Source: Lytechinus variegatus (taxonomy: Eukaryota; Echinodermata; Echinoidea; Temnopleuroida; Toxopneustidae). Taken from it: a DNA stretch of 64,000 nucleotides. How positions within the stretch are numbered: position 1 is the stretch's first letter; the number at the start of each line of letters is the position of its first letter. Position numbers and translations under genes: made by a program. This document shows, piece by piece, positions 8,318 through 62,617 of this stretch. Location of the stretch: positions 58,109,048-58,173,047 of the forward strand of contig NC_054741.1 of NCBI RefSeq assembly GCF_018143015.1, written 5' to 3'. The notes under the pieces are model-generated. The model made no database searches. It was not told the DNA's origin and saw nothing but the letters and a program-made list of their open reading frames with translations.

Positions 8318-8380
<63 letters not shown>

Positions 8381-8382
8381 GC

Positions 8383-8413
<31 letters not shown>

Positions 8414-21984: not shown

Positions 21985-24900
21985 ATGGTTTGGTGCAAAG
22001 GAATTGTTCTTGTATTTGGGATTTTGGCGTTCTTTTGTGGATCAATACTTGCTGTTTTAGGTCCTGGAGACAAATATAATGGGTAAGTGTATTTGGTAAT
22101 ACCTCGGTCACATTTGTTCTACGGCGGCCGTCCGGCGAGTCGCAAACAGCCGTTTTCATATTTTTTGTACCAGTTTAATATGGGTGGTTTGAATAAAAAT
22201 GAATAAAACGGCTGTTTTCCACTCGCCTTACAGCCGCCGTAGAGCAAATATGACCGAGGTATTAAATGCATCGACTTTCCTTGATTAGCCATAGATTATG
22301 ACGATGAAAATAAACAAGGAAAATATTTTTCAAATAGCTTTTTAGCAGTCTCATCAGTATCATTTTTTTTTACCATATTGTACACTGAATTATTCATACC
22401 CCCAATTTCTCTGTTAGGTTACATCGGCCTACTTTACTTTGTGCAGTTTTGTTATTTAATTGTTAGATTTAATTTAATTTTATTTTTTCAATTTAAGATA
22501 CGTCTTCCTTCAACCATGCATCAACAATTTATTCCTACTATGTATTTTCATCTGCCGACATAACACTCTATTCTGTCAATGTGAATATTATTTTAATACA
22601 TGAAGTAAATAAAACAAACAGGTGATCATAGATCTAACCTATATCCTGATTATATTGTCAGAAATTGGTTTGAAACGCGAATTTTAACAGAATGAAATAG
22701 TGGTGGGGTGTGGCAGTCCCTGAAAATTTTAAAACATTACGAAACGATATTAGATTTTTTTAAAGACAAAAGACGAGGTTTAAATCAAGGTACGAAAATA
22801 CCATGAATTTTCTGTTTTCATCTCTCTCTGTTTCCATCTTTCCCCTTTCCTTCAGTTTCTTTCATTTGTCCCGCTTAGTAATTTTCTGTATTTTTCTGTC
22901 TTCCATTCATTAAAATAGCTAATTCTTTCTTCCCTTATTCATCTACGTGTTTCTAAACTTTTAAAAAGGATTGGTAAAAATCAACTATTTCACCGGGCTA
23001 TTTCATTGCTGGAATCTACCAGAATTTGGGTTGATATTGGTCAACGGTCGGACACCGTTATTCATCACCTACACATTATTTCTGTTAGTTTGACCATATC
23101 CTTTTTACGGGGATTGAGCAACTTTGTGGAGATTTGTAAAAAAAAAAAAGCTGAGCTTTAAGACCCAACATGCTGTCAGTGCATCCAATAAAGTTTCAAG
23201 AGAGAACTCTGAAAATTATATTTCATAATCACCATTATTATAATCATGCTTCGTAAAATACAACATCCAACATCCATAGCCTACAGTACGAAACTTTAAA
23301 CTTTAAGCATCCAAATGGGCGCTTATGACTGCAGTCAACATCATTGCAGCAATATTGTAAGCGACCGATCAACTTAAAATTATCAGGCGATTCCTGTCTG
23401 ACCTATTAAGGTTTGCAGTTACACTGTTACAAAATTTTTCCTTAAAGTTCCTGCAGCGGAGTCTCGAGAACACCTGTAATCTTACCAGATCATATAAAAT
23501 TACAGAAAATTGATATTTGGTGTGTGGAACCTTACAAATTTCCTTTAATAAAACACAATCATTTTCCCCTTTTAAACAGACCTGTTATGTTAAATTGCAG
23601 ACAAATTCCTGTTATATGAATTTACAGAATTATTCTGTTATTGCTTTCTGCAAAATCTTCCTATTTCTGTAAAATCAGGTGTTTTTTAACAGTGTTTTCT
23701 GTGGGAGAGAGAAAAAACCGTCGATCCTGAATTAAATTAATAAACCCGTCTAGGGGTGTCCTTATCTTTAAATTTCCACTTATACCTCCATGTTTGTATT
23801 ATACCATACAGATATCAAGTTTGGCGCGTAGTACCTACCAACGTAGACCAAATCAGAAGTCTCATTAAACTCGAGCACAACTTCGATGGATTCGATTTAG
23901 TAAGTTACACAATTTATTTACTTGGATCGTGGGAATTAAAACAATCAAATCTAAATTACAATTAATGACTGAAAGTGATAATGACCCCTGTTCCACCGGA
24001 TTTCCTAAGTAGTCTCGAGTAGGTTTCTAATTCGATGTAAACGCAAAAACCTACCCGAGACACCCTCTCAGCAAACTTATCTCGGATCCACCTGGCGTAA
24101 ATCCGCGTTGATGGGGGGGGGATGACTAAAATATTTTGGCTTTTTTTTGGCAATCAAGTTTTTAGATATGCAAGGAATTGTCACTGATATGTCCACAGTG
24201 GCGTACCGTGGGTCACGGCATCGGGGAGGGGGCACCAGCAAAATGTTCGAATCACTCAGTGAGCGCGCTCAGTTGCCTGTTACACTGACCTCAGTTTTCT
24301 GGACAATGTCACTAAACGGATATGCATCTCACTGATCAAATAATGCGAGCGCGTAGCGCGAGCTGAATTTTTTTTATATTCAGGCCCATAAAAAGAGACA
24401 TTATAATCAAATTTGTGTAATCATGATAGGTACCTGTCTCGCTAAACAATACGAGCGCGAAGCGCGAGCTGAAGTTTTTGTATATTTTGACCCCAAACAG
24501 CGAGATTTTTAGGAATATATTATAGGAACCCATTAAGAGTATGCATATCTCACCATAGTCATCTAATGCGAGTGTCAAGCGCTTGCTGGTTTATAAGAAT
24601 TACATTTGAACACATGAAACAATTTTTGTAGCCATTGCAATCATGATTATCATCTCACTAATCAAATATTGCGAGCGCGAAGCGCGAGCTGGAAATTTAG
24701 ATAATTCAACCCTGAAGTAGGGCATTCTAATGTTTCTTTGTAGGAATTAACTAGGACCATACGTATTTCATTATCCAAATGATGCGAGCGCGAAGCGCTA
24801 GCTGAAATTTTTTTGATATTCAGATCAGAAGAAGGGACAGTTTAAGGACTGATTTTAGGAATTCATGAAGAGCAGACATATCTCACCAATCCACTAATGC

Positions 24901-27900
24901 GAACGTAATCACGGACAGGAAATGTTTCATATATACGAAGACTTTAACATGGGGCAATCACTTTTTGAGTCATGAAAACGAAGCATATGCCACTACATAA
25001 AACAATGATAACTCAAGTGCTAGGAAATATATTTGGTTTATATTGACTTGAAAACGGGATGTTTCAGTACAACAGGATTATATATCTCGTTAACAGACAA
25101 TGCAAGCACCGGGAACAATGAAAACGTAGGCCCTGGGCAAATTATGTTTCATGAAGTTTTGATAAAAATGTTTCTTATGTAATGTAACATAACATAATTA
25201 TAATATAACATTATAATGAATAATATTTTCTTCTTTTCCCACTATACGTTTCTCTTCCTTTCTCCCTCTTTTCTCATTTTCCCCCTTTTCCCCGTTTTTG
25301 GGGTTTTTGTTCGTCCGATGGGGGGGGGGGGGGGGGGGGGGCACGTGCCCCCCATGCCCCCCGTAGTTCACGTCACTGTATGTCCATATGGCAAATACCC
25401 CTCCAATATTATTATCCTCTTTATCCCATGATGGATTAATGGTTTATTAGAGATTACATTAAAAAAATTGAAATTCCATCTTAATCCCTTCCCAAAGATC
25501 CCAACATTAATGATTTGGAAGAAACGGGAATTTCTCTTCAATGTTATAATAAGGACATAAGTATTTCGTTTGGAAATGGTGAACTGGCTCGTTATTTGCA
25601 TTTTATGATTCAATAATATTGTTTTATTTGTTAAGTGGTATTTCAGGAAGAATTTTCACCAATAAAACAATTATCTCTTGTGATTTTTTTTTCATTTCTT
25701 TCGTAAAAAGTGGGGGATGTTTGTAAAGGATATATCCCCCCACCCCCGGGATTTACGCTAGTGCTCGGATCAACTAACAATGTGTTCCAAGACCGGTCTC
25801 GGGGCGCCCCGAGACTGCTTTGGACGCTTTGGATTCGGTGTAAACGCAAACCCGCCCGAGACTGGTCCGAAACAGGTTCGCTTGATACGCTCCATGTGGA
25901 AAGATTACATAGCGCGCGCTTGGAGCCCTTCCAAACCTCAGACAGCTTTGGTAAAGTCGGTGCAAACGCGTAGATAGCTGTCTCGGGGCTCCCCGAGACT
26001 CGGAACGATTCCGGTGTAATAAGGGGTCAACAATTTAGGTCAGCTTTTTTTAAACCAGACTCGGGGCGCCTCGAGTCTGGTTCAAAAAAAAATCAAGAAT
26101 CCCACATATTCAGTTAGCGTTTCATCAATATTTTTATCCGACAAGTTGTCAGATCTGACATCTTTCCATGATTTTGATCGGCTGAGAGGCACTGTTCCTA
26201 TGGTAACTGTCGGATAAAATGGGACTTGTCGGATTAAACGTCGACAAGTCCTTTCATGAAACGCCCTCCCCCGTTCTCATTATTGCCGATGCTTTACTGT
26301 TTATATGTTTTTATCAATAACGGGGGTCTATGATGACAAAATCTGTGCATGCAACTCCGCGAATACGAATTTTTGTGGGCTATTGGAACTTTCGAGCTTA
26401 GCCCGAGTCACACTGCGAAAGGCTGAGCAGAGACTTTTTTTTAGTAAATTGCCAAACGATTATGGAGTTCTTTGAATATAGTGTGATGTGCTTGTAAAGA
26501 CAATTGGACAATATCTGGCTACTTAGTAGGTATATAGTCCTATCACAAAATATTTCATCCTAAAACATGAATTACACGTATGGTATTCAAAATTTTCAGA
26601 CTTAACATTTAATCCAAGTATGCCATTATGCATTCGTAAAAAAAAAACATTTGAAAGAATATCAAGCGTGGGAAATACTAAAGCCCTTTGAACATACATT
26701 AAAGCTTTGTCATGAATTATGTTTCTTGATCAAGATATCATAAAAAGCAAAGCATCGGCAATAGTGAGAAACATAACTGAATATGTGGGATTGTTGATAT
26801 TTGTAAAAAAAAAAATATAAAGCATGATAAAAATATTTCTAAACATTTAACACAAAAAACGAAGACAATAAACTTTCTATATTGCTTTTAATTCGAGTTT
26901 ATCGAGGTTCACATAGCGAAACATTCGTAGTTCTAGTTTATTATAATGATTTGTACTTCACTTTTAATGACTTACAGGGGTCTGCGTGTATTACATAATT
27001 TTTCTTTACAAGTCAATGACAAAGGAGATAATTATTTATTCTTCATAGATTATGAATTGCTATAGATATACTGCGAGTGCAGGCATCGGTATTTTGTGTA
27101 TTTCTGAAACCCTTCAACACTGTGTTATTTGGTGTTTTAGTTTCCCCCTTGACGAAATATATGACAGTCCAATAGATTTGTTAAAAATCTGAGAATTAGA
27201 AAAATGGGATGAAATAAAGTAAATTGTAAGAACAAGCACAGATGCGATGCCAATGTATCCAAACCTTGTTATTTGGATTGCTTATTCTGAAAGATCATCA
27301 CCGTATATATTGACAGCAGTATGGCGTCGCACAGTTCTTTTAGATTGGAACAGTTATTATTTTTTTTCTTATTTCAAGTTCAAGTTATCAGGCATGTGAT
27401 AACATCTACCAGTCCTAGACATGTAACATTGCTGTTCAGTAAAAGAAGCTATGCTAAAAATCCGAGTTGATACGTTAAAAACACTATTCTCCAACCTTGT
27501 ATACTATAAGAACCTTTATTACAAGAAATGATCATAATTGTTTAAATTTACTCAAGAGATTTGAAATCTAAACAGTAATTTCCCATATCCTACATTGATA
27601 TTGTTTGTAATATTGAATTATTTTTCTGGTGACTTTTTTGTGACTAATTTTTAACCAAACCTCCGACTTGGTTTAACAAAACTGATTAACAATGTCGCTC
27701 GGGATGCTTTATGAATGCAGTATACTACCTCCACACAAATTTAAAACACATTTTTAGGCCTGTAGAATTATAGAATGGAATTAGACAACCACCCAGGCTG
27801 AAGAATTAGGGGATAACGTGTAAAGATGTGACTTTCAGAGCCTCGTACGTTTCTCTCCCGGATTTTTCGATGTACGCCGAGCTGATAATGAAACTCCTCG

Positions 27901-30900
27901 TATTACGAAGCTCCACGGCGTACGAGTGAACAATGCCAAGCTCTCCGTACGTCCAATCAACGCTCGACCCATGCGCCTCATCTACGTAACAATAATGATG
28001 AAAAGTAGACAAATAAGTAGTTGGTCGTCATTTTTCATGCAGTGTTTAGTAACATAATATGCAAAAGAATTATTTACATTATGAACTCCTTGATGATCTT
28101 GATCATGATAATCATGAGAATATTTTTTTACAATGAAAATGATGATCATGATAATGATAATAATTATGATAATGATGATAGTGGTGGTATGGTATTAGTG
28201 ATTTTGATGGTATTGCATGGTGATAACGTTCACGGTATGGCATCGCTTCGGTTCAGTTTATTTTACTTTTCAACAAACAATCATGGACATATACATGGTA
28301 AGGAGTATTGAGTATGACCCTAGTTTTGATGGTTACACTTCGTAATTCCGAAGGTTCGTGATTCCGAAAACGAAATAAAGTTCGTTGTTCCGAAAACGCG
28401 GGCACAAATTTTTGAAATGCTTTTCTGTCAGCGCCATGAGCACTGAAATGTTTACCCGTGCGCTATATAAGTAGCCGCTATTATCATGATTATTATTATC
28501 ATCATCATCATTATTATTATGGTCAATTTTGAGCACTTATTTGATTTTTACGCGGGCTTGAAAATACGCGCGCTTCATGACTTTTTGTCTACTTTCGTCG
28601 ATATGTTCCGTCGACTCGGAAGTTTAATAATGTGATGTAAATATTTATAGTGATCCGTAATGTTGATGTGATCATTGATGGAATTTAACAAACGGCGCCT
28701 TGAAGACTTCGTTATGACCTGATGACATTGAAAAAGGTTCGCTGCACATATCCATAGTAACCTCCATAGATGACATGAAAGTGAGTATGGTGAAGGAAGT
28801 GGTCGATTTTGAGATAATGAAGGGGGAAAATGGCTATTAGATTAAAACAAAATGATAGAGATGATTCCGACGAAATTGATAATAGTGATGATAATAATAG
28901 TAATAATAATGAAGATAACAATAATAAAAGGTATTTTTCTAGCGCACTTATTATCCAATAAGTGATCTGTCATACAGACAAACAATAATCCTTATTTACC
29001 CAAGCAAGGTAGCCGCTGATGCTATAACTGATCTTCCACACAGCAAAATCTGTGGTGTTAACCGGTGTACATAGAGGACCACACCAGTTATTTTACACCG
29101 GTGTTAAATTGTCAGTGCTATTTTAACACCTATAGGTTATATTGTAACACCACTGGTTGTTACATTTACACTATTTGGTGTTTTGGTAAATCTCGAGGGT
29201 GTAATTTTAACACCTCAGGGTGTGGTCCTCTATCAACACCAACTGGTGTCAGTTTTAACACCACAGTTTTACAGTGCAGAAGGCGGCCTGCATGACAGGG
29301 CCTTTTCACATGTGAATCTTAAATCATCATTGTAATTATGACTGCAATTCGTCTGTAGAATAATCGGACCTTTCACACGCTCACTCGAAAACTGTGGTTT
29401 GAATTCGAATTCCCGAGCAAAGGCGGTATGTGTCAATAATGATAATATTATTCATTTTTTGTTCTAATTTTCATAGTCACCATCAACAATGTTGTTGTTA
29501 TTGTTATTATCAACAAATTGTAATTATCTTTATTATTATTGGTATATATATTGATATTATTATCATTGTCATTATTATTACTATAATTATTATCATTATT
29601 ACTACTAATATTATTAGTATTATTTTAATCATTATTTGTACAACTGTTATCATTGTTATCAATATTTATCACTAAGGAATATCCAAACAAATGAAATACA
29701 TTACTCACATATAACTGTAGCAATTGGACCCAAATTGGTGTGGTACACTGTTTCGCCATCATACACACTTTGCAGTGCACTTACTGACCTAGTAGCCACA
29801 TCAATCTGGGAAAAAGAAGAAGAGCAAGAAGAAGAAGAAGAAGAGGAATGAGAAGAAGAAGTTTTCCATTGTTTATTTTGTAACATAATAATAAATCGAT
29901 AAGAAATTAATGACATAAATTTTACACAAGCGAAGTCATATACGCTACAATGCAGGTAGAAATTAAGTCAGCGAAATCGTTCATTCCTCGGGAGGCAAAA
30001 CAATGACGTATAGGACTACAAAACGAGCAATTTATAGTGTCATCGTAGGTTGAAATTGTAACATGAACACTCGATTTCGAAGTAATTATGAGACATCTAT
30101 GAATATAATGGATATTTGGTGAATCGTCATCGTCAAATTCCCTCCAAGTGCTCGTTCCTGTAGGACATATTTGCTTTCTACTATACATTATTTGCAATAT
30201 TGCGTAAAATTGTGTACGCCCAAACGCGCATCTGCGTATAAATAACGCATGCACGATTTTATTTGTCAGTCTTCCTTTATTGAAATTTCTTCAATGTTTC
30301 TAGTCAAAGTAGTACCCTTACCTCAAAATAATAGGATTTGAACAGATGAAGAAAAATCAGACAAACAAAACACTAAAAATTTGATAAAGATTGGACTAGG
30401 AATTACGAAGTTATGGCCTTTTCAAGATGAACATTCAGTGAGCAAACTGCATATCCCCTCTTGTTCGTTTGTAGTTTATTATATGAATTCGGTTTATTCA
30501 TTTTTTTCCTCCAATAGCTAACAAGGAAATCGATTGACAAATCATTTAGTGCATTCGAAATTATTTGCTTCAATCACATTTCATTATAAGGAAGACATAT
30601 TATCATTCACACATGACATGAAAAACAAGAAAACAATTATGATTTCATGTAATAGCATAAAGGAAAGTGGGGATGTAATATCATCAGCCCGTCTCATGAA
30701 TATTCATGACGACATGCATGAAACTGTTTTGACAATAGTATATTGCTAATCTTAAAAAATAAATAACTTAGCTATCTATTATCAGATTTTGATGTTATGT
30801 CATTATAAGGGAGATATATCATTCACGCATGTATGAAAAACATGAAAACAAGTATGATTTAATGTAAAAGCATAAAGGAAAGTGGGGATGTGACATCAGC

Positions 30901-42900: not shown

Positions 42901-43063
42901 TATATTAACAGAAATAAGAAGTATTACAAGTAAGAAGTAGGAAGAGAAGAAGAAGAAGAAGTAGAAGAAGAAAAGAAGAAATAGATGATGATGAGGCCTT
43001 CATCAATTTCAAGCTCTAAGCTTAAGATGAAGGTCTTCCATATTTCAAAATGTACTATGTTGA

Positions 43064-43101
<38 letters not shown>

Positions 43102-46100
43102 TTTTTCTGCCATTTTTTGTAACAATTAAATAAAAATGTCAGGTATAAATATATTTTAATTAGATTATTAGATTGTATATATGTATATGTTATTAATGTA
43201 TATGTTATTAGTTATATCATTTACTTATGTTATGCTAAGAAAAAAACATTATTTCACTTGTATATGATATTATTGGAATGTGGAAATAAATAAATCAAAT
43301 CAAGATGAAGAAGACGAAGAAGAAGAAGAAAAAAGAAGATGATGATGATGATGATGAAAATTTGTACAGATTGAATTACCTATTTTGTAAATATCTCTAG
43401 CAATATCTTATTGATGAATCAGTAGCATATATGCCCAATCGTGACAAGCCCCTCTGTTAACACAATGGTCTGACTCACTGCAAGTCGCCGAACTTTTAGC
43501 ACGAGGTTTTAGATTGATTGATTGATTGATTAATAACGAATTCATTTCGTTCCAAAATTTCAACAAGGTTACAAAATAAAGCAAAATATAATATTACATT
43601 ATGAAATGAAATAGAAACCTTCTGAAAAGCAAAGCTTGCTATTGAAGGTTTCCTTCAATAAATAAGACATATTAATGCAGAATACAAAGTTCAATACATA
43701 TATACAAATCATATCTTTCTTGTAGAAGTTTAAAATATATATAATACACTTGTAAGTCATCATATCTTTCTTGTAGAAATTAAATGTAAATCCTTGTTAA
43801 ATATATTTTTTAACATATTCTCCCAAGTAAATGATGAACAAGCTAGGCTTGATTATATTACAAGATATGAAGAAAAAGTGAAAAGGACTCACAAAACAAA
43901 ACGTTACAAAAACAGGACGTGACAGAACGGTACAAGAACAAGGCATGACAAAAATTTATACAAAAACAAGACATACGAAATAGTATAAGAACAGACAAAT
44001 TGAAATAAAAAACAACAACAATAAAACAAAGGACAAAAATCGAGTAAAAGAAAGCAAACAAAAGAAAAAAAGGGTTCATGTTTCATATCCCATCGCAGCA
44101 GCTGCACTCGCGTCCTTTTGCACGGCGTTTATCTACATTTTACACTCTCCATCCAGGGTCCGGTAACACATAACACAAAGTTTAACAATAATTGTACGCT
44201 TGATTTCTTACGATGGATTGTACATTGTAGTCAATGAAATCAATCGTAGAAAAATGTTCGACGATCAATGTCACGCTTTGTGTTACGGGCCTCAGGTGTA
44301 GTTGATGGGTACCCTATAGTAAGGGAAAATGCTCGAGCGCTTGAAGAGGGTAGCCGTGCATGCTAAGGCCTGGACAATATGCAGTGCTTAGAAATAGTGT
44401 AAGAATTACTCTATTAATGTTGCATAATATTCTTTAATCTATTATACTATAATGTTCATCTTATATGTTATGACATTTTATGGGGACATTGTGAAAAAAT
44501 ATTTTCTAATGTATCCATATTCTTGAATAAAACACCCCGTGGAATACTATGATTAGTTGTCGTCTAAGAATTGCCGCTCTTTTATCGATTTCTTAAAGGT
44601 CGACTTCTGGAGAGAGGCGACACCGTCGTCGCTTCACCGTCCGGTCGACATCATGGTTCCACCGAGCCTACGTAATAACCTCCGTGACATCCTGACGTCC
44701 CTTTCTCTCGACATCGAAATCAACATCCCTGACGTTGGAGCTCTAGTGACTGGCCAGATGTCAGAGATTCAAACGAGACGCGCGAACGAGCCAGTCGGTA
44801 CAGCAGCCCTGTCAGATTTCGACTACACACGGTACCACACTTACGATGAGGTAAGGGATTCATCAAAGGAATTTCTTTAAGTAAAGGTATTGTGGCTCAG
44901 TACTTCGAACCACAATGCCCGGGTTTCAAATCTCAGTGCAACCACCCTCGAAATATTTGGCAAGGTACTTCCCTGGACCATCCTTGCAAAATCCATTTTT
45001 ACTTTTGAAGGCCCAAGACTCTGGGGAACTATTAATAATAACATCAAAGAATCACCAAGCCTAAATTCTTTCAAATATAAGTTCAAAAAATTTCTCCAAG
45101 ATAACCATTGAATTAACTCTTCATTACTCAAACTCTCATTTTTTTAATCAAACATGATTATTATGTGACGTACATTTTTCCATCTCTTTCGTTTTCCTGT
45201 TGATCAAGGAGGTCCGTTTGTGAGTGCTGGGGCTGGATTGTGGAGACCTTTAATCTCCCTTTTTCTTATTTCCTTTTCTATTTTGATTTCGTCTATTTCT
45301 TTTTAATTTAGCTGGTTTATGCTCAAGTTGTTATTTTGATTTTTATGTGCTATGTAACTGCAATAATATTTATTAGGAGGTTGCATCTACAAGCTCCGCT
45401 TTTTAGCAGCCTCCTCCATTTCCAACCTGATCTTGAATATAATTTTTGTACAGGATACTTGAAATACGTTTTGTTATATTTATATGTCAAAATGTACAAA
45501 ACAAACTGTAATTGTTGAAAATGGAAATAAATGAAATGAAATTTATGTGCATTTGCCAATCTCCAATATGTAGTAAATGTGTATCCGAAAGGAAAGAATC
45601 ATTAAATGCTCGAGCACAAGTGGTTGCCATCAACCGCGTAGCCAGGATTTCATTTTGGAGGGGGCGGTAAATGCACGCGAAGCGTGCCAACACTTACAGA
45701 GCGCGCGAAGCGCGCTCCCTAGGGGGTGGGTGCAGGGACGCGCGAAGCGCGAAGCTTTTAGTGTTTCATAAATTAAAATGAAAAGGAGCCGTTTCTCTTG
45801 TCTATAGTACCTCCAATTCGGTTGACTATATTGCGATTTTGAACCTTGTTTTCAAAAGTGATTGTGAACGCACAAAAGAGGTATACAATGGAGGAAATTA
45901 AAATGATAATAACTCCGCGCGAAGCGCGGAAGCTAAAGTGTTTTATCAATTTTCTTGCCATAAAAAGGGTCCCGAGAAAAGGGTATTCTCAAAGATATAT
46001 TGAAACTTTCTTTGGAAAGATCAGATTTGATTACAAACAATTTAGCATCAGTGCATATTTTTAACTCGCAAAACAGAGGAGAAGATTGGTAGAGGAAGAT

Positions 46101-49100
46101 ATTCCTCCCCGCGCAGAGCAATGAAACTCTGAAATTTCAAAGGGCGGACGTTTCATCAAATGTAGATATCTCTAATACCCAATCGGCTCTAATTCAATTG
46201 ATTTTCTAAGATTATTGAACTTCATTATAAGGAAAACAGTGCGCAAAAAGTTGAAACTTCTGTGATTTATTGAATTCATCTATCTATATAAAAAAGGATG
46301 CATAATTTTTTTTATTTATCCTGAAGCGCTTCATTTTGAATATAAAGAAACTTAAGTGTCATTCAAAATTTCAAACTGAGGGCGCAAAACAGGACACGAG
46401 ATGAATGTATACAGGGAAATGACATGAAGTTTAATACAATTTGATAAAAAAATATTGTACTTTTTTTTATTTAATACGACACGAATTCCATACCTTCCTC
46501 TTTTTAGATTAGGAACCTGTTTGCCCCCAAATTATGGTTGTTTAGTAATGAGCTGAAAAGCGGGAGAAGTTGACTTTATGGAGGTGACGGCAGAAACTGA
46601 TATAAAGATTTTACCCGCTCGGAGCCGACCAGACCAGAAGTTGCGCGATCAATTGAAAAAAAGATAACTTCATATATTTACTTCGGCCTAACCTTACTCA
46701 AATTCATGCCCTAATGTATACAATTTTAACTTTAACTGGCAAGAAGCACATAGCTGAGGTGGAAAAACAGGGTTAGAGCTAAAGGTGGGGGAACAATGGA
46801 GAACTTCAATATTGTCATTTAACCGCGCGCAGCGCGGAAGCAAAATTCATATATGAATTTAGAGCAAGAAGAGTGAAGGAGTTTCTCTTTTGAGAAAAAG
46901 TAAAGACTAAAAAGAAAAAAAATCACAAAGCTACCTTTCTTCCCTTTCCTCCCTTCCCTTTTCCTTTTCTCCTCTCTTTTTTCCCTTCTTTTTTCTTTTT
47001 GGGGACGTTTGGGGGGGGGGCGACCGCCCCCACCGCCCCCCCTGGCTACGCGCCTGGTTGCCATGCTAAAGCCAGGGTACAGAAATATTGTAATTATGGC
47101 AAATGCAATATAAATGTTTCATATCATGGGTAAAGCTAATAACTTTCTTTGATTTAACACAGCAAAAATTGTGGTGTTAACCGGTATACATAGAGGACCA
47201 CACCAGTTATTTTACACCGGTGTTAAATTGGTGGTGTTAGTTTTACACCTGTAGGTGTTATTGCAACACCGTTTGTTGTTACATTTACACACTTTGGTGT
47301 TATGTTTAATCTCTAGTGTGTAATTTTAACACCTCAGTGTGTGGTCCTCTATTAACACCAATTGGTGTCAGTTTTAACACCGCAGTTTTTATCTTATTTT
47401 CTTTTCAGATCCAGCAGTGGGTATCAGATATTGTGACAGAGTACAGTGACATCACATCTCACTTTTTGCTTACAACGTCATATGAAGGAAGGCCAATCAA
47501 TGGATTCCGAGTAATCAATTCGACACTTTCATGACAATCAGTTTAGAACTTTATGATTATAAAATGGGAGTATAGGGGGTAAGAGAGACCAAGGGACTCG
47601 GAAACAGGCAGGCAGCGGCATAAAGGAATTAAGAGGGGGGGGGAGGGGTGGGGGATGAAAGGGAGACAAATGAGGAAGAAGGGCAGAGAGACAGAACGAG
47701 AAAAAAATAGAGATAGGGGACCCCTTAAATGGAAGCGAAATATTACAGTTAATTGGAAAGAAAAAAAAGAAAGAAAGAGAGAGAGAAAGAAAGAAAGAAA
47801 GAAAGAGAGAGGGAGGGGGAGAGAGGGAGAGAAAGAGAGAAAGAAATAAATAAAGAAAGAAAGGTAACATAAATCTAAGTATAGAAGCAGACTGAGAGAC
47901 AGACAACATATAAAATGCCATAAAGCGAGGGCAAATAGAGAGAGAGATAGAAGATGACGAGAGAGAGAGAAAGAAAAGAGACAGAAAAGAAGAAAAAATA
48001 AACGTTATAAACACTGTAATTAAATTTCAAGGTGGAATTTTAAAAAAAGGAAAACAAGACACAAAATTAATTGACTAGGGGTATACACCCCCCCCCCCAT
48101 TTTCTCATCTGTATAGATCAGAGGAAGAAACAGTGTTGCCAGTGATCCTCCTCCCCCAGCGGTGTGGTTTGAGGGCGGTATACACGCCAGAGAGTGGATC
48201 AGCCCAGCCACCGTTATGTGGTTTACAGCACAGGTAAATAGGCCTATACAGATGTTTGTTTGTGGATTAAATTCAATTTTCTATATGTACATTCTATTTT
48301 TTTAAATATGTCACCCTAAATTATATAATTCTTGCTGTTTGAATATCTCATTGTACCTTTAACATCATAGCATTTATGTGACCTCATTTTTTATTTCCCG
48401 TTCTGTATTTTGGGAGCAAAATAATCACGCTTGTTTAATGAAAAGAGATATGCATTAGCCTTAATAGCGCCACCTCATGCCCTCAACTACTTGCACGGGG
48501 CCAGCATAATGCAACATTCTTTTCTTTGTAGTTTTGTAATATAGAACCGCTTGAATGGTAAAAATAGTTCTTTCTTAATAAACTAAATATTGAATCACCC
48601 CGTTTAAACAAATTGCATATCATTTCTATTTGCTCATTTAGAGATAAATGAATCAAAATATACCAATATATTTGTAAAAACTCGAAAATGAAAAGCCATT
48701 GTAAAGATGGGTTACGCTCCACAGAATAGGAGCACGTATTAACATTTTTTTTACGTCTTTATTTTCCACGAAGCTTCTACAAGATTATGAAGACGGTGAT
48801 GAATTGGCTATGAGTATGTTTGATAACATGGACTGGTACATCGTCCCATCTCTTAATCCAGATGGCTACACCTACACTTGGACTAACGTAAGGAAGACGG
48901 GATTTGTTACCACTTCAAAAATGGACGTTACATTGACGAAATCCCTCATTGTTACATGATGAGATTTTATTCTAATTCCCCTGACAGCACTGTTTAATGG
49001 AAAATAACTATGATGTTGGAAATATACTTTTATTCGCCTTATTCAATACAAACAAATCACCGAATTCTGTGTAGGGTTTGTAATAGATTGGGAATATGCA

Positions 49101-52100
49101 TGTTAGCTTTGACTTGGGGGGGGGGGGCTTGTCAAAAATAAAAGAAAGTGTGCCCCATGTGGCCTGTTGGTAAATGCTGGATTCATAAGTGGTACCCACA
49201 CACTAAGAATTTGGGGTGCAAAAACTTTGCGGAGCAAGCTTTGGGGTGCATGAAATGCACTTATGGTGATAATTTGTTTCTTTTAGAGAGGTGCAAAGAT
49301 GCATATTTTCCTGTTTTCCCCAGTGTAACATTCGGTGTGCACCTTTGAAATCACAAAGTTGAACCTATTTTTCTTACTGTGCAGGAAAAAATAGTGTCCC
49401 TGAAGTTAAAAGTTGTTAAAAAAAATCTCGGATGGAAAGGGGGGGGATAAACTGCTGGTAAAATTTTGAACGACAAGGCTAGGGAAACCCCCAAATGAGT
49501 TCATTAATCAATTTAGCCACATGAGCTGATGTTGAAATATGGAAATGTTTATTCGTATCCCTACTGCAAACAGAGCGTGCCTGTATATTTTGCGAAGTAC
49601 ATGAACTATGTTATTTACCACGATCAAATTGAAATTACACAAATACAATCTATCAATTGAACAAGAATTGATCTCTCTGAATATGTTAATACGCCGAAAT
49701 TGTAGGAAACAGTAGACTCTGAGACAATCAAGTCAAATTCAAAGAAATATGGCAGCGCATTATGTGCATGACTTTGTTAAAATTAATAGAATCATAGTTC
49801 CGAGAATTCTTGTCGTTTTTAATGAAATCAAGTTGATTTAATAGCAACCTATTAGTTTATATAGATATCTATACAAATTGAGTAGTGAAAAGTTAGTTTA
49901 AAAATGGACTACAAACCTGCAACATATTAAGAAATAAATTTTATTTTGAGTCTCCAAATGCAAAAAGTAAATATGTTTTCAATTGATCAAAGAAAATTTA
50001 CATGCTGCTGAAAAAACTCCCTTAAAACAGATGAGACTGGTTAAATATTTGACATTCTATTTCTATTCACCATTGCAATTTCATTAATCGACTTTGATTA
50101 GTCTTCGCCTTTCATCATTTTCAGGACCGACTTTGGCGAAAGACCAGATCGGATAATCTAGACAGCACAGGTAGTGGTTGCAGGGGAGCCGATCCGAACC
50201 GCAACTTCCCTTTCGGATGGGCCGGTAAGTTAATTAAATCCGGGGGTCGAAACAATAGAGAGATTTCGATTGTCTGCGACTGCAACGTATTCCTAGTTCA
50301 CCGGAAGTGGTGACACCGCTCGTTCAGTATCACGTTCGTACATTGATGAAAACAGTTTCGATTTAAGTCGACGTACCCGTACCACGCCACAGCATATACC
50401 AGCGTGATAGTGAGCGGGCCGTGGGCCGATGCTTGGCCGGAGAATCAGGCGTAGCATCACGCTACGAACCAGTTGGGCGACTGTGTGGGTGCAACATTTG
50501 CACTTTTGCGCAAAAAGCCGAAAAACACGGTTCTTTGGAAATAAAACATAAATTACCTATCGGATATGTAGTGTCTGAAAACAGGACATACTAAATGTAA
50601 TGGAAAAGCTGGTAACAAGCAGTAATTTGCAGTTTACCAGCCCTGCTGAATCAACGAAACTCGAGTGTTGATGCGGCTTCATTCATTTTTGCCAAGCTGG
50701 GATGACGTCATCATGTACGAACTAGCGCTCGTTCGAGCACTATGACACCGAACGTCAAAACCCTCAAATACGAGTCACAGATTTGGTCAGTGGACGAGAA
50801 GGCTCGTCACAGATTACTTCGCGCATGCGCAGTGCTCCCAAAATTCCTTAATCTCGTACGTCCACATGGCACGTCACAGAAAACGAAAGGTCTCAAATAC
50901 CTCCAACCTCGCCCCACTCAATGTCACATGGTTCAAATGGTAGAAGATACTTTAGAGAATTATATTGACAATGTCAACTTCCCAGTAGTCTGCACCTCCA
51001 CCCATTTTAAGGAGTGGCGTCTAGTCAAATAAATTATATATAAATGTATATAAAAAGAAATCGTGACTAAAAAGACATACTGATATACCTGTTAAGAATG
51101 CCAACATAACAGAGAACAGGAAACGTTTCTTAAAAGTCGATATCACTAGCAAAGCATATTTTATGACAGGTACAGAGAACTCATAGGCTTTGATTGTTCG
51201 AGAAGCCAAATTGCGGTGCCGGGGGGGGGGGGGGGCAGCCAGGGGTTACTTCCCTCTTGTAATTTTTAGTAAAATAGAAAGAGAAAAGGGAGGGGAAATG
51301 AAAGGAAGCAAAGAGGAATAAAAAGAAAATATTTTCAAGTATACAAGAGATATTTGGTCGTTTAATTCTATCACATCCTTATTTTTCAGAAGAAAACAAA
51401 ATACGTCGCGTTTGGATCATCTTACCCGGCCCTTCCACCCACTCCCTCATCAAAATAAAGAAAGGTGTGACCTCTAATGGTCATCTAGTGAAATGGTATC
51501 CTTGTTTATATTAATTATATCTACCTTAATATGATCACTATCCTAGGAAACGGCACCAGTCCATTCCCGTGTTCAAACATCTATCACGGCAAATCGGCTC
51601 TCTCTGAACCCGAAGTCGATGGCGTTGTTGAATATCTTCGCAACCTGAAGGCTAATAACCAGAACTTCCTCATCTTCCTCGATTGGCACAGCTACGGACA
51701 ATACTTCCTCTCTCCGTGGTCCTACTCGGCCTACGCCCCAAACCCTCCCGACTATGACGCAATGGTGAGGACATTTTTTAGTGGCCCCTTTCATGAATTC
51801 TGGATCATTTCCTTGATGTCCTATTACACACTTAAATTAATTTATTGGATAATTACATTTGATTAATTTAAGAATAATTATGATATTGGCGATCGCTAAA
51901 ATAATCTTGATATCAAGAATGTTGAAATGAAAATTTCTGATGATCAAAGTGTCCTTTTTCATTGAACAAAAAATCATGACAGGAATAACAGCCCTTATCA
52001 CACAACTCGATGGAAAATTATACCATCCACTAACATGTAACTTTTAACTTAAGAAATACACAATGGAAAATATCAAATAGAAAACTACTACCGTATATAT

Positions 52101-53606
52101 AAAACTGCCAAAATCAGCTTCAAATTCCGAAGGCAGATTCGACAATGTAGCTGAATTCGATGGAATTTATTCCGATTCGATTCTTCGGATATTCCTTCAA
52201 CTTTTCGTCAGTTCGTATGATGTTTACTTTTGGCAAATTCCCCTTTAAATTTTCACCAATTTTATACTTTCTAATCCTTTACTGGTTCCTTTCTATAGAT
52301 GGCAATGGGTAAGGCTGCGAGTGATGCCATAGCAGCCGTCCACGGTACAGTCTTTCAGAGCGGCTCATCCATTGAACTCTTGAGTAAGTATGATGGAATT
52401 TTTAATTCATAAGATCGATGTTTCTTTTGTTGTTGCATGATTATTAGGGTCATTTAATTGTTGGAAATATTGGCAGAACATGCTAGGTGTGAGAAGTTCT
52501 TTGATGAACGGTGATATATGTCAAGTTCAAATACAACGACTGGAGCCAAGCAAGGTCTCAGCTGCACAGCTGTCGATATCACAGGCTGGTGGTACTGGCG
52601 TATACGTACGCTTGGGGGCACTGACGTCCAAACATTTCAACGACAGTCTCCCCCCCCAAAAAAAAAAAAAGAAGGGGAAGGAAAAAAGTGTGAAAATCGA
52701 TGTTATATCCTTAGTATTTCCAAAGAACGGCACAATATAAACTTATAGCCAAAAATAAGGAAAAGAACGTAACATTTTAACAAACGGAACATGTTTCGAC
52801 GAAGTTCAATCCTCGAAAGGTTTTTTAGGCTGATGATGAGGTGTGAACTTCGAAAGATGTTCCGTTTATTAAAATTCTATGTTCTTTTCACTATTTTAAT
52901 GTGCTGATACATTTCTTGCTGAAGGAATGCATGCCATGGCTGGGAATCGAACCATTGAGATTTAACTTGCATTTTCAATGCATTTGCTGTGTTCTGGGAT
53001 TCGTTCTGCGTAACGTTGTAAAAAAAACTTCCTATCATCAAGACAGTATTGATGTTATCTTCAAGAGGGTAATGATGTTAACATCTCGACAGTATTGATG
53101 TTACCACCAAGACAGTAATAATGTTATCATCAAGACAGTAATGATGTTATAATCAAGACAGTAATAATGTTAACATCTCGACAGTATTGATGTTATCCTC
53201 AAGACAGTAATGATGTTATCATCAAGACAGTAATGATGTTATCATCAAGACAGTAATGATGTTATCATCAAGACAGTAATGATGTTATCATCAAGACTGT
53301 AATGATGTTATCATCAAGACAGTATTGATGTTATCATCAAGAGGTTAATGAAATGTATCATTTTCACCTCTTTCAGACGAGGCCGCAGGATCCAGCAAAG
53401 ATTGGGGATACGTCCCTTACGATGAGACCAGCAAGTTTAGGGGTGGTCTTGGTGCCAAGTACTCTTATACTGTGGAACTTCGTGACAAGGGAACCTATGG
53501 TTTCCTGCTGCCCGAGGACCAGATTCAACCCGTAGGGGAAGAGATGTACGCTGGGGTCCGGGCCATCGGGGATTACATTCTTAGAGAACTTGGCTTTATT
53601 CCGTAG
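21985..53606 (+). CDS. Gene 2: secreted zinc carboxypeptidase (M14A) with Lys255/Asn248, 10 exons, 467 aa
   Basis: Coding exons: 21985-22082, 23812-23899, 44599-44850, 47409-47510, 48117-48233, 48774-48887, 50125-50224, 51547-51764, 52299-52383, 53377-53606. The start ATG sits in CAAGATGG and is followed by a hydrophobic signal sequence (residues 1-25). The prosegment runs to about residue 146, with TRR near its end. Catalytic-domain residues seen are His203/Glu206 (HAREW), Arg262 (WRKTR), Asn282-Arg283 (DPNRNF), His338 (WHSYGQ), Glu425 (VELRD), the Cys276-Cys299 pair and an NGT sequon at Asn292. Lys399 sits at position 255. A basic residue there accompanies acidic C-terminal preference in human CPO and an insect digestive enzyme (family knowledge). 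Asn392 replaces Tyr248; the codon is split A|AC across intron 9. Exons 1-2 are joined to exon 3 over 20.7 kb that contains gene 3 on the other strand. Phases fit, no rival exon 3 was seen at 23.9-27.8 kb, and no rival exons 1-2 were seen at 40.1-44.6 kb, but this join is inferred. Intron 4 starts with the weak donor GTAATC. A possible poly(A) signal is AATAAA at 54407. Confidence 0.85.
22099..22262. mobile_element. MITE family D, copy 3, directly after gene 2 exon 1
   Basis: TACCTCGGTCACATTTG ... CAAATATGACCGAGGTATT, 164 bp. It begins 16 bp inside intron 1 of gene 2, beside the GTAAGT donor. Confidence 0.8.
23422..23694 (+). mobile_element. MITE family A, copy 3 (gene 2 intron 1)
   Basis: CACTGTTACAAAATTTTTCC at the left and TTTTTTAACAGTG at the right. 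The interior matches the other A copies. It ends about 115 bp before exon 2 of gene 2. Confidence 0.75.
24240..24920. repeat. Diverged tandem array with GCGAGCGCGAAGCGCGAGCT core
   Basis: The near-palindromic core recurs near 24345, 24450, 24567, 24671, 24783 and (decayed) 24899, every 103-118 bp. Each core is followed by an AT-rich segment with ATATTCA and a later CATATCTCA. It lies in the 20.7-kb intron of gene 2, non-coding. Confidence 0.7.
25320..25341. repeat. 22-nt poly-G run
   Basis: The longest homopolymer in the window. Its last six G form the palindrome GGGGGGCACGTGCCCCCC with the following bases. Confidence 0.9.
25740..26075. repeat. GC-rich repeat with palindromes of the GTCTCGGGGCGCCCCGAGAC type
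   Basis: A perfect 20-bp palindrome at 25796-25815 is followed by two variants, near 25980 (GTCTCGGGGCTCCCCGAGAC) and 26056 (CAGACTCGGGGCGCCTCGAG). GGTGTAAACGC recurs. A decayed relative lies near 23995-24110. The open frames on both strands here are artefacts of the repeat. Confidence 0.6.
26117..26265 (-). repeat. Interspersed element E, copy 2
   Basis: Reverse complement of 20121-20268 over its full length, with a few differences. It lies in intron 2 of gene 2, upstream of nested gene 3. Confidence 0.6.
26270..27514. other. AT-rich interval between gene 2 exon 2 and the gene 3 3' end
   Basis: No exon resembling the carboxypeptidase exon 3, no clear repeat and no RNA gene was recognised. 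Its lower end holds the likely 3' UTR of gene 3 (minus-strand AATAAA at 27515-27520). Confidence 0.4.
27806..40014 (-). CDS. Gene 3: secreted zinc carboxypeptidase A-like (M14A), 10 exons, 411 aa, antisense inside gene 2
   Basis: Exons in transcript order: 39950-40014, 38496-38577, 36969-37175, 35434-35535, 34804-34905, 33378-33491, 32767-32854, 31305-31507, 29709-29805, 27806-27981. The phases are identical to genes 1 and 2. The signal peptide starts MFRVLTFAVLLASALA. The prosegment exon has 69 codons against 83-84 in the paralogs. Active-site residues are His170/Glu173 (HAREW), Arg229 (WRKTR), Asn246-Arg247 (DPNRNW), His298 (FHAYGE), Tyr354 (248, split codon T|AT) and Glu377 (VELRN). The disulfide pair is Cys240/Cys260. 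Ile349 (243) and Val361 (255) make a hydrophobic S1' pocket, so a CPA-like preference for bulky or aliphatic C-terminal residues is inferred. Oddities are Ala299 and Glu302 where the paralogs have Ser and Gln, Ala in place of Thr two residues before Glu377, and a tail lacking the usual YGFLLP block. The loop after Trp363 is near vertebrate length. AATAAA on the minus strand (27515-27520) could be its poly(A) signal. It looks intact. Confidence 0.9.
28860..28930. repeat. (AAT/GAT)n microsatellite
   Basis: Imperfect trinucleotide run in gene 3 intron 9. Related AT-rich trinucleotide stretches lie at 28135-28190 and 28480-28520. Confidence 0.7.
29039..29276. mobile_element. MITE family B, copy 1 (GGTGTTAA-rich) in gene 3 intron 9
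   Basis: CACAGCAAAATCTGTGGTGTT at the left is mirrored by AACACCACAGTTTTACAGTG at the right. The interior alternates GTGTTAA/TTAACAC and carries AGAGGACCACAC with its inverse GTGTGGTCCTCT. Homologous to 47158-47391 and, in part, 38289-38405. Confidence 0.75.
29430..29660. repeat. (ATT)n-rich microsatellite
   Basis: Imperfect ATT/ATC tract ending about 50 bp before exon 9 of gene 3 on the plus strand. Confidence 0.75.
30578..30902. repeat. Direct repeat pair of about 108 bp
   Basis: 30578-30687 and 30796-30902 share TCATTATAAG, TCATTCAC, GAAAAACA and AGCATAAAGGAAAGTGGGGA in the same order. It is a local duplication in intron 8 of gene 3 with no coding sense. Confidence 0.7.
31140..31278. repeat. 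G-run repeat, related to 14050-14215
   Basis: TTTTGACAAGCAAAAAG, GGGGGGGCACACTTCAG and CATTGTGCCTCTCGAGG in the same order as the gene 1 intron 9 copy. It ends 27 bp from the donor of gene 3 exon 8. Confidence 0.55.
32303..32570. mobile_element. MITE-like element (CACTGTAAAAA)
   Basis: ACACTGTAAAAACATTGCG, inner TTTGGGGCAGTATATTACCCAA, ACACATAATTACCCTC and a second ACACTGTAAAAACGC at the far side (about 32561). A further short inverted stretch around AGTTTAAACAACTT follows to about 32660. Probably one or two short elements in gene 3 intron 7; boundaries uncertain. Confidence 0.4.
36590..36824. mobile_element. TIR element (GATTTCAAGT..GGTGTTG) in gene 3 intron 3
   Basis: GATGATTTCAAGTTCGGTGTT at the left is mirrored by CAACACCGGACTTGAAATCA at the right. 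About 235 bp. This is the compact relative of the LINE-split element at 10797-11857. Confidence 0.65.
37318..37629 (-). mobile_element. tRNA-derived SINE, copy 2
   Basis: Same family and orientation as 12618-12968. Shared stretches include CAGAATGGCCCAAAG, CATTATGGCGCTGGCAAAAT and TTTACAAGGCGAGAGTCAGA. The minus-strand A box (GTGGAGTAGTGG) and B box (GTTCGAATCC) are recognisable. It lies in gene 3 intron 2, just upstream of exon 3. Confidence 0.75.
37678..37790 (+). repeat. Unnamed interspersed sequence, copy 1
   Basis: Homologous to the reverse strand of 54770-54890. Shared stretches include GAGAATCTGTTGTCAAAAGC-like, CATGACAA, GTCTTTGTCGAAAAT and CGTCCTGGACTCTGGACAAA. Translations of the two are also similar (ENLLSKAYHD / ENVLSNALHD). 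It may be a fragment of a multicopy coding element. Confidence 0.45.
38289..38405. mobile_element. MITE family B, partial copy
   Basis: CACAGCAAAAACTCTGGTGTT, GAGGACCACACTAGTTATTTT and CCTATAGGTGTTATTACAACACC match the left half of 29039-29276; the right half is missing. It lies about 90 bp beyond the donor end of gene 3 exon 2. Confidence 0.65.
40015..40246 (-). promoter_or_regulatory. Putative 5' flank of gene 3 with GATA-type motifs
   Basis: On the minus strand upstream of the ATG, TTATCTATCCC and TTATCTATTCC sit about 100-120 bp away. GATA factors drive endoderm genes in echinoderms (known), so gut expression would be consistent. Two short motifs are weak evidence. Confidence 0.2.
40247..40535. 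mobile_element. TIR element (CCCGTATTCTGA ends) just upstream of gene 3
   Basis: CCCGTATTCTGATAGCAG at the left and TTCAGAATACGGG at the right. Inner AAGTTGTGGTTTAAGTATGG mirrors CCATACTTAACCACAACTTT. ACTCA lies on both flanks (possible target duplication). It starts about 230 bp before the gene 3 start codon. Confidence 0.7.
42506..42815 (+). mobile_element. MITE family A, copy 4
   Basis: CACTGTTAGAACATTTATCC at the left and TTTTTTTTAACAGTG at the right, with TA on both sides. It is about 30 bp longer than the other copies owing to an extra ATGTTAAAATA and CATTATGTCATAGG. Confidence 0.8.
43068..43098. repeat. (AT)n microsatellite
   Basis: Uninterrupted TA dinucleotides in intron 2 of gene 2. 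GAAGAA-type purine runs lie on both sides (42945-42985, 43305-43355). Confidence 0.85.
44885..45540 (+). mobile_element. LINE 3' end preceded by a tRNA-like/SINE head, gene 2 intron 3
   Basis: 44890-45110 encodes a stretch ending GPRLWGTINNNIKESPSLNS and then FKYKFKKFL, the usual C-terminus of many non-LTR elements. The 3' UTR contains the hairpin AGGAGGTTGC...GCAGCCTCCT (45375-45415) and an A-rich tail at 45520-45540. Just before the coding part, TGGCTCAGT, CCCGGGTTTCAAATCTC and GGCAAGGTACTT resemble a SINE head. Confidence 0.6.
45640..47062. repeat. Composite repeat with GCGCGAAGCGCG cores and G-run end
   Basis: The left edge GCGTAGCCAGGATTTCATTTT and right edge CCTGGCTACGCGCC are inverted. 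Palindromic cores such as GCGCGCGAAGCGCGC lie near 45702, 45740, 45918 and 46823. Between them is AT-rich sequence with no gene. It is related in style to 24240-24920. Confidence 0.55.
47158..47391. mobile_element. MITE family B, copy 3, abutting gene 2 exon 4
   Basis: Matches 29039-29276 from CACAGCAAAAATTGTGGTGTT to AACACCGCAGTTTTTA. It stops 17 bp before the acceptor at 47408, so the 3' part of intron 3 is derived from the element. Confidence 0.75.
47630..47990. repeat. Purine-rich (GAAA/GAGA)n tract
   Basis: Strand-asymmetric G+A sequence in intron 4 of gene 2, with clean GAAA repeats at 47755-47860. The long open frame on the minus strand is a low-complexity artefact. Confidence 0.75.
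50240..51060. other. GC-richer unexplained block in gene 2 intron 7
   Basis: The composition is less AT-rich than the surrounding intron. It holds a 96-codon open frame (50742-51032) with no recognised family and the palindrome ATGACGTCAT near 50702. It could be an inserted repeat or processed fragment; no function is assigned. Confidence 0.3.
52880..52960 (-). repeat. SINE fragment
   Basis: ATTTCTTGCTGAAGGAATGC then CATGGCTGGGAATCGAACC corresponds to the TTTCTTGCTGAAGGAAAT / CATGACTGGGATTCGAACC part of the SINE at 60641-60923. The rest is missing. Confidence 0.5.
53031..53349. repeat. 23-bp minisatellite next to gene 2 exon 10
   Basis: About 14 units of the type ATCATCAAGACAGTAATGATGTT. 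A variant AACATCTCGACAGTATTGATGTT recurs after four units, so a higher-order period of about 92 bp is visible in the left part. The array ends 27 bp before the last coding exon. Confidence 0.9.
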
Positions 53607-56548: not shown

Positions 56549-57116
56549 AGTGCAGGTTGGTGAGGGGTGGGGAAATGAGAGGCAATGAAACAGAGGCAGG
56601 GCAACCCCAAACAGCGGCATTCCTCAATGTTAATATCTGTAAACATATTGATCACTGTTCAATTACACACCCATTTTAAGTTTTTTTCCCCTCTCTTTCA
56701 TTGTGGCGCCTCGTATTGTTACGTCATCACTCTCAGAAGCACCCACACACTGAACCACCGAACTTAAAACCTCTCAACTACTTAGTCCTTTGTATTGTCT
56801 ATGGTCTTTGTGTACTCAAAAGACTTGAGGTTACTCTGTGAGAGAGGGATGTACCTACGATAAATGCCTTTATGCATAACACTGGATCTTACAAAGAACT
56901 TTTGTTCGATCAGTTGCATAATAAAGAAGGCATTGATTTGGTACGTAACGTGTACAACTTGAAAGGAAGCAGAGATGTAGACCCTGTAGGTGGTTGCAAA
57001 AAAATGCCGTGGATCACATATTAACCAGGATCAGAGGCACCACATCTGTGACATGGTTGGCTCCTCAAAAACAGTCTTTAAGAATAAATGAGAGTTCTGG
57101 TAGAAGTGGGTAAAAT
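56549..57116. other. 5' flank of gene 4
   Basis: No repeat or gene recognised. It should contain the gene 4 promoter and 5' UTR, but no decisive element is seen. The start ATG is in TATGGCGGCG context. Confidence 0.35.
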
Positions 57117-58193: not shown

Positions 58194-58274
<81 letters not shown>

Positions 58275-62500: not shown

Positions 62501-62617
62501 GTAATGTTGATGGTACTTTCGTGTTCTTTTCACATCATATTGCGTCTGTTTTTTTAAATGTATTAATTCGTGCAACATATTCAGGTCAATAGGCCAAGAT
62601 GATATTTTCGTTTTTTT

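What the first reader, a model, noticed from the sequence alone, without database searches (positions are those of the whole stretch)
21985..53606. A whole carboxypeptidase gene nested antisense in an intron of its own paralog
Seen: gene 2 exons 1-2 end at 23899 in phase 0, and the next plus-strand exon of matching type starts at 44599 in phase 0. The complete ten-exon gene 3 lies between them on the minus strand. No alternative exon 3 was seen at 23.9-27.8 kb and no alternative first exons at 40.1-44.6 kb. Inferred: an inverted duplicate entered a 20-kb intron, or an inversion caught one member of a tandem array. Overlapping convergent transcripts of related sequence could form double-stranded RNA. 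A mis-assembly or an orphan pair of 5' exons is the competing explanation.
Basis: partly seen in the sequence, partly recalled or inferred. Interest (0 to 1): 0.72.

Follow-up and report, generated by a model that had tools for sequence, protein, structure and literature searches.

The report
Peptidase gene inside a relative's intron
In what looks like a sea urchin genome, a complete digestive-type carboxypeptidase gene lies backwards inside a 20.7-kb intron of another carboxypeptidase gene; the layout appears real and is seen twice in the assembly, but it is an unusual case of a well-known arrangement (nested genes).

Summary
Host gene 2 (+, 21985-53606) and nested gene 3 (-, 27806-40014) are both complete ten-exon M14A procarboxypeptidase models with GT-AG introns in the same phases. 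Scans found no other exon 3 after 23899 and no other exon 2 before 44599, and only two weak exon-1-like strings there. In the genome search, exons 1, 2 and 3 of gene 2 each have one close match elsewhere, all in a second copy of the region. That copy, about 2.75 Mb away on the same contig, has the same exon order and strands, so a chance mis-assembly is very unlikely. Between copies the joined gene 2 differs by 22 synonymous and 0 non-synonymous changes. The proposed origin is not supported: gene 3 is not an inverted member of the local array but nearest to a gene 9.7 Mb away (49%; AU p 1.4e-4 and 2e-6). Gene 3 may be decaying in the second copy (frameshift, 4 amino-acid changes, 0 silent). 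The double-stranded-RNA idea has no special support: exons do not overlap. New member of a known kind; no transcript evidence was available.

The parts
21985..22082 (+). Gene 2 exon 1 (start codon, signal-peptide-like, ends GG|GT phase 2)
   Evidence: identical in copy B
23812..23899 (+). Gene 2 exon 2 (start of activation peptide), ends phase 0
   Evidence: identical in copy B
23900..44598 (+). Gene 2 intron 2, 20,699 bp, holding all of gene 3
   Evidence: 24,884 bp in copy B by the exon positions
44599..44850 (+). Gene 2 exon 3 (rest of activation peptide, start of mature enzyme)
47409..47510 (+). Gene 2 exon 4
48117..48233 (+). Gene 2 exon 5 (HAREW, zinc motif; role recalled)
48774..48887 (+). 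Gene 2 exon 6
50125..50224 (+). Gene 2 exon 7 (DPNRN motif)
51547..51764 (+). Gene 2 exon 8 (DWHSY, third zinc ligand; role recalled)
52299..52383 (+). Gene 2 exon 9
53377..53606 (+). Gene 2 exon 10 (VELRD with the catalytic Glu, role recalled; stop at 53606)
39950..40014 (-). Gene 3 exon 1
38496..38577 (-). Gene 3 exon 2
36969..37175 (-). Gene 3 exon 3
35434..35535 (-). Gene 3 exon 4
34804..34905 (-). Gene 3 exon 5 (HAREW)
33378..33491 (-). Gene 3 exon 6
32767..32854 (-). Gene 3 exon 7
31305..31507 (-). Gene 3 exon 8 (intact here; one-base deletion in copy B)
29709..29805 (-). Gene 3 exon 9
27806..27981 (-). Gene 3 exon 10 (VELRN; divergent loop after it); AATAAA on the minus strand 286 nt past the stop
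489..14691 (+). Gene 1, complete ten-exon neighbour on the + strand, with its own exons 1 (489-556) and 2 (5292-5373), so exons 1-2 at 22-24 kb are not its own

Best explanation
This is a true opposite-strand nested gene pair. Gene 2 is one of three same-strand neighbours (a gene just upstream of the window, gene 1, gene 2) and its pre-mRNA is spliced from 23899 to 44599 across a 20.7-kb intron. Gene 3, an intron-containing procarboxypeptidase of a different subfamily, sits whole and backwards in that intron as its own transcription unit. It most likely arrived as a DNA-level copy or move of a gene of the C2:67.9-Mb type (it keeps all nine introns, so it is not a retrocopy), and stays because splicing removes it from the host mRNA. 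Shown: anatomy, exon absence tests, second copy, subfamily difference, coding constraint on exons 3-10. Inferred: the splice 23899-44599, separate transcription of gene 3, direction and time of arrival.
For: Three complete models with the same exon number and phases. Joining exons 1-2 to exon 3 raises the Propep_M14 score from 42.1 bits (exon 3 alone) to 60.1 and covers profile positions 1-70 of 73; the joined protein aligns from residue 29 to 459 with procarboxypeptidase A4 and similarly with A2 and A1. No rival exon 2 or 3 and only two weak exon-1-like strings. In all 13 other genes whose exon 3 region was fetched, the exon-2 scan found an exon 2 close upstream, two of them (genes 1 and 3) being in the training set. 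Exons 1, 2 and 3 of gene 2 have one close match each outside the window, all in copy B. Copy B has all 20 exons of genes 2 and 3 in the same order and on the same strands. Joined gene 2: 22 synonymous, 0 non-synonymous differences. Gene 3 with gene 2 rejected, p=2.0e-6; gene 3 inside gene 2's subfamily rejected, p=1.4e-4 (that group was named after the tree was seen).
Against: No RNA evidence of any kind was available. Exons 1-2 have 0 of 186 nt changed between copies, but flanks are also little changed (e1 flanks 0.5%, e2 flanks 2.2%), so constraint on exons 1-2 by themselves is not shown; all 22 silent changes lie in exons 3-10. Any exon 1-2 of this family could splice in frame to any exon 3, so phase does not prove the pair. 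Intron 2 is seven times longer than the next longest measured. The two copies may be two haplotypes or a duplication of one event, so they are not independent evolutionary evidence. Tree support is moderate: only 2 of 9 inner branches are starred.
Confidence: 0.85

Rival explanations
1. Exons 1-2 at 22-24 kb are an orphan pair left from a lost array member, and gene 2 starts from its own unrecognised first exon or promoter near 44.5 kb, perhaps without a complete activation peptide.
For: Intron 2 is far longer than in relatives; exons 1-2 alone show no measurable constraint; two weak exon-1-like strings lie at 42205 and 42305; no RNA was seen.
Against: Exon 2 keeps family consensus, frame and splice sites and is identical in both copies; no exon-2 candidate in 39.9-44.7 kb; the two exon-1-like strings lack the K-Y-x-G ending of the family.
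Confidence: 0.1
2. Mis-assembly or mis-orientation of a block holding gene 3.
For: The assembly holds a second copy of the region, so duplicates may not all be purged; dispersed repeats lie in and around the intron.
Against: Both diverged copies show the same order and strand for all 20 exons; a short-word search between the two intron flanks found a single 13-bp inverted match, though diverged repeats could be missed.
Confidence: 0.03
3. Gene 3 is an inverted duplicate of gene 2 or of another member of the local array.
For: Same family, same ten-exon structure, adjacent.
Against: 37% identity to gene 2 against 49% to the C2:67.9 gene; lacks the insert before LGAKYS that genes 1 and 2 carry; AU tests reject it.
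Confidence: 0.03

Closest known systems
Opposite-strand nested protein-coding genes (e.g. ceh-10 in polq-1 of C. elegans, PMC12274878; 2mit in tim2 of Drosophila, PMC3786989; passages seen)
   Same: A whole gene lies in an intron of a host gene on the other strand; 567 such pairs are counted in C. elegans.
   Different: Host and guest in those two examples are genes of different kinds; here both are procarboxypeptidases, 37% identical.
[quoted passage not shown] passages seen)
   Same: Paralogous genes share one host intron; nesting was gained, mostly kept and in some lineages lost.
   Different: The paralogues there are all guests; the host is of another kind. Here the host itself is a family member.
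Animal procarboxypeptidases A (MEROPS M14A, name recalled), such as CPA4, CPA2 and CPA1
   Same: Propep_M14 plus Peptidase_M14 and the catalytic motifs.
   Different: Gene 2 has Lys before the conserved DW and Asn where CPA has Tyr248 (numbering recalled).

Membership tests
Opposite-strand nested gene pair | Guest gene wholly inside one host intron on the other strand | tested here: met
   27806-40014 (-) within 23900-44598 (+); no exon overlap
Opposite-strand nested gene pair | Host mRNA spliced across the guest | not testable with these tools
   needs RNA reads; only indirect evidence
Opposite-strand nested gene pair | Guest transcribed from its own promoter | not testable with these tools
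   complete reading frame and an AATAAA 286 nt past the stop; no expression data
M14A procarboxypeptidase (genes 2 and 3) | Signal peptide plus Propep_M14 plus Peptidase_M14 | tested here: met
   both Pfam domains over cut-off for genes 1-3; signal peptide judged by a hydrophobicity scan only
M14A procarboxypeptidase (genes 2 and 3) | Zinc ligands and catalytic Glu | tested here: met
   HAREW, DWHSY/DFHAY, DPNRN, VELRD/VELRN in the alignment; motif roles recalled
Inverted duplicate of the host | Guest is the closest relative of the host or of its array | tested here: not met
   AU p=2.0e-6 and 1.4e-4 against
Retrocopy in an intron | Guest lacks introns | tested here: not met
   gene 3 keeps all nine introns

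The most novel reading that the evidence does not exclude
The nesting works as a switch between two peptidase specificities: transcription of gene 3 (Val at the specificity position, read as favouring hydrophobic C-termini) interferes with transcription of the 20.7-kb host intron and so lowers gene 2 (Lys there, read as favouring acidic C-termini), and haplotypes in which gene 3 is broken differ in digestive output.
Probability: 0.05. Interest if true: 0.6.

Novelty: new member of a known kind. Interest (0 to 1): 0.32.

Why it matters
It is a clean case in which host and nested guest belong to one enzyme family but to different subfamilies, with two diverged copies of the locus to compare. It can show how a family member moves into a relative's intron, and whether the guest is free to decay while the host is held under strict constraint. 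It also warns gene predictors, which could easily split gene 2 or fuse it wrongly.

Tried and rejected
Repeats as the cause of an inversion: many dispersed repeats in the window (20 of 23 direct families and 25 of 28 inverted pairs shown), but a short-word search between the two intron flanks gave only one 13-bp inverted match; no support, although diverged repeats could be missed. Decayed extra carboxypeptidase exons in the intron flanks: family HMM scores of at most 1.4 bits at 26937 (+) and 0.2 bits at 43411 (-); rejected. Tree of the 5' part alone: exon 2 has 27-29 residues, judged too short, not attempted. Copy B as haplotype or duplication: one 1-kb probe at C2:58300001 matched C2:55569744 at 97%; the probe at C2:57900001 did not complete and the one at C2:58240001 was not sent, so it is left open. 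A long open frame reported at C2:62718696 was a run of N. Papers: six searches, of which four bear on nested genes or carboxypeptidases (12 of 139 listed, 15 of 20, 10 of 68, 1 of 1) and two on genome assemblies; listings were seen, and passages of three papers. None of the listed titles and abstract starts reports a carboxypeptidase nested in a relative. Two works on nested genes were not held. Rows dropped: blast pieces under 300 bp; two of 14 gene rows (62.72 and 65.34) left out of the IQ-TREE tree for thin or doubtful coverage, while the similarly thin C7_31.58 row was kept. The rows are tblastn projections and hold some doubtful stretches. A further AU test, holding the upstream gene, gene 1, gene 2 and gene 3 together, also rejected (p=4.3e-7), but it is partly driven by the C2:62.63 gene, which sits beside gene 1.

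Full report
What is there. Splice-aware models give three complete procarboxypeptidase genes in the window, each with ten exons, AG/GT at every internal boundary and the same phases: gene 1 (+, 489-14691, 451 aa), gene 2 (+, 21985-53606, 467 aa when exons 1-2 and 3-10 are joined) and gene 3 (-, 40014-27806, 411 aa). All three carry Propep_M14 and Peptidase_M14 over Pfam's cut-offs. The joined gene 2 aligns from residue 29 to 459 with procarboxypeptidase A4, and similarly with A2 and A1. Gene 3 lies wholly in gene 2's intron 2; no exons overlap.

Is the host really one gene? Because all three genes share the phases, an in-frame join by itself is weak evidence. I therefore looked for rivals. An exon-2 profile with splice and frame constraints, trained on genes 1 and 3 and three PDB sequences but not on gene 2, gave 14 hits at score 12 or more in the window and 16 fetched loci; each is exon-2-like, 11 of the 14 are followed by an exon 3 that a simple pattern recognises, the one at 23812 ranks third, and none lies on the plus strand in 39.9-44.7 kb. 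An exon-1 scan found the three true exon 1s of the window plus chance hits; in 39.9-44.6 kb it found one weak hit (42305), and one more (42205) under relaxed rules, neither with the K-Y-x-G ending of the family. Pfam Propep_M14 over the whole genome finds 24 places (23 over the cut-off), three of them in the window: the exon 3s of genes 1, 2 and 3. A family HMM finds nothing above noise in the two intron flanks. In the genome search with the gene 2 exon 1-3 peptide, exon 1, exon 2 and exon 3 each have two close matches, here and in copy B; the next best exon 3 is 52% identical (only the best candidates are scored by that tool).

The second copy. The window lies at C2:58109048-58173047 of an 869.6-Mb assembly in 33 contigs. 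About 2.75 Mb away, at C2:55.32-55.41 Mb, lies a collinear copy. Matched blocks from 16 kb before the window to 2 kb after it run in order at roughly 85-98% identity, with unmatched stretches between them; around genes 2 and 3 the mismatch rate is mostly 0-6% per 500 bp, with a few windows up to 18%. All 20 exons of genes 2 and 3 are there in the same order and on the same strands. A single 1-kb probe 127 kb past the window's end also matches in order, at C2:55569744, 97%; what lies between was not looked at. This looks like two haplotypes kept in the assembly, or a young large duplication; I could not decide which. Either way the arrangement is in two diverged sequences, which makes a chance mis-join very unlikely. 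By the exon positions, intron 2 is 20,699 bp here and 24,884 bp in copy B.

Constraint. Joined gene 2 differs between copies at 22 synonymous and 0 non-synonymous positions over 1,404 nt; exons 1-2 are identical (0 of 186 nt), so all the silent changes are in exons 3-10. Flanks of exons 1 and 2 differ by 0.5% and 2.2%, so identity of exons 1-2 is not surprising even without constraint; it agrees with a working gene but does not prove it. Gene 1 differs at 17 synonymous and 5 non-synonymous positions. Gene 3 shows another pattern: four changed amino-acid codons, no silent change, and a one-base deletion in exon 8 of copy B that shifts the frame; the window's copy is intact. The numbers are small and the deletion could be a sequencing error, but they fit a guest gene that is less constrained than its host. 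Gene 3 also lacks the GFLLP loop that genes 1 and 2 have after the VELR motif.

Where gene 3 came from. Genes 1 and 2 share 51% identity and each about 57% with a further gene just upstream of the window on the same strand; gene 3 shares 37% with gene 2, 40% with gene 1 and 49% with the gene at C2:67.9 Mb. In the IQ-TREE tree of 12 of 14 rows, gene 3 groups with the C2:67.9 and C1:70.66 genes (88/97); gene 2, gene 1 and the upstream gene group with the C2:62.63 and C2:81.2 genes (93/96); neither branch reaches the program's star. Holding gene 3 with gene 2 is rejected (p=2.0e-6), as is holding it inside that five-gene subfamily (p=1.4e-4; a group named after the tree was seen). So gene 3 is neither an inverted copy of the host nor a flipped member of the local array. 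It keeps nine introns, so it is no retrocopy. The simplest account is a DNA-level copy or move of a gene of the other subfamily into intron 2; the direction and date are inferred.

Intron size. Of 13 other genes tried (genes 1 and 3 among them), intron 2 could be measured in ten and is 164-2,960 bp; in three the pattern did not find exon 3. Gene 2's 20.7 kb is the outlier, as expected if it took in a gene of 12.2 kb plus repeats.

How it works. Splicing removes the guest with the intron (inferred). Overlap in transcription could cause interference, as discussed for nested genes in PMC12274878 (passages). That the genes are paralogues adds nothing to it.

What is known. Nested genes on the opposite strand are common: 567 protein-coding pairs in C. 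elegans (PMC12274878, passages), and nested genes make up about 6% of Drosophila genes (PMC3786989, passages). Clusters of paralogues inside the intron of another kind of gene are known (TipE cluster, PMC3240667, passages). That a family member hosting another member is less usual is my impression; the four searches that bear on it (listings only) showed no example for carboxypeptidases, which is no proof that none is in print.

Species. 

Noticed in passing
C2:55.320-55.410 Mb (L009-L017) against the window: A second, collinear copy of the whole region, with one further probe 127 kb past the window matching in order at 97%; likely a second haplotype left in the assembly, or a large young duplication.
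   Followed up: partly
C2:65.29-65.35 and C2:65.80-65.85 Mb; also C17:17019303 and C17:18743842: Other M14 hits come in similar pairs, so duplicated haplotypes may be widespread in this assembly.
   Followed up: no
L018-L019 (C2:58098800 to about 58107000): A further carboxypeptidase gene of the same subfamily lies just upstream of the window on the + strand, about 57% identical to genes 1 and 2.
   Followed up: partly
window 53377-53606 (exon 10 of gene 2): Gene 2 has Lys just before the conserved DW (bovine CPA position 255, numbering recalled) and Asn at the place of Tyr248; three relatives (upstream gene, C2:62.63, C2:62.72) have Lys there too. Lys suggests a taste for acidic C-termini as in CPO (recalled).
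   Followed up: partly
copy B, between exons 9 and 10 of gene 2 (C2:55387298-55395626): Intron 9 is 8.3 kb in copy B against 1.0 kb here; the extra sequence holds relatives of the repeat at 24.2-25.1 kb in intron 2.
   Followed up: no
window 52987-53351: A 23-bp minisatellite lies just upstream of the acceptor of gene 2 exon 10.
   Followed up: no
window 57114-62554, +: Open frames that read like a type II membrane sulfotransferase gene downstream (impression); the one Pfam match of that kind is below cut-off (E 0.05).
   Followed up: partly
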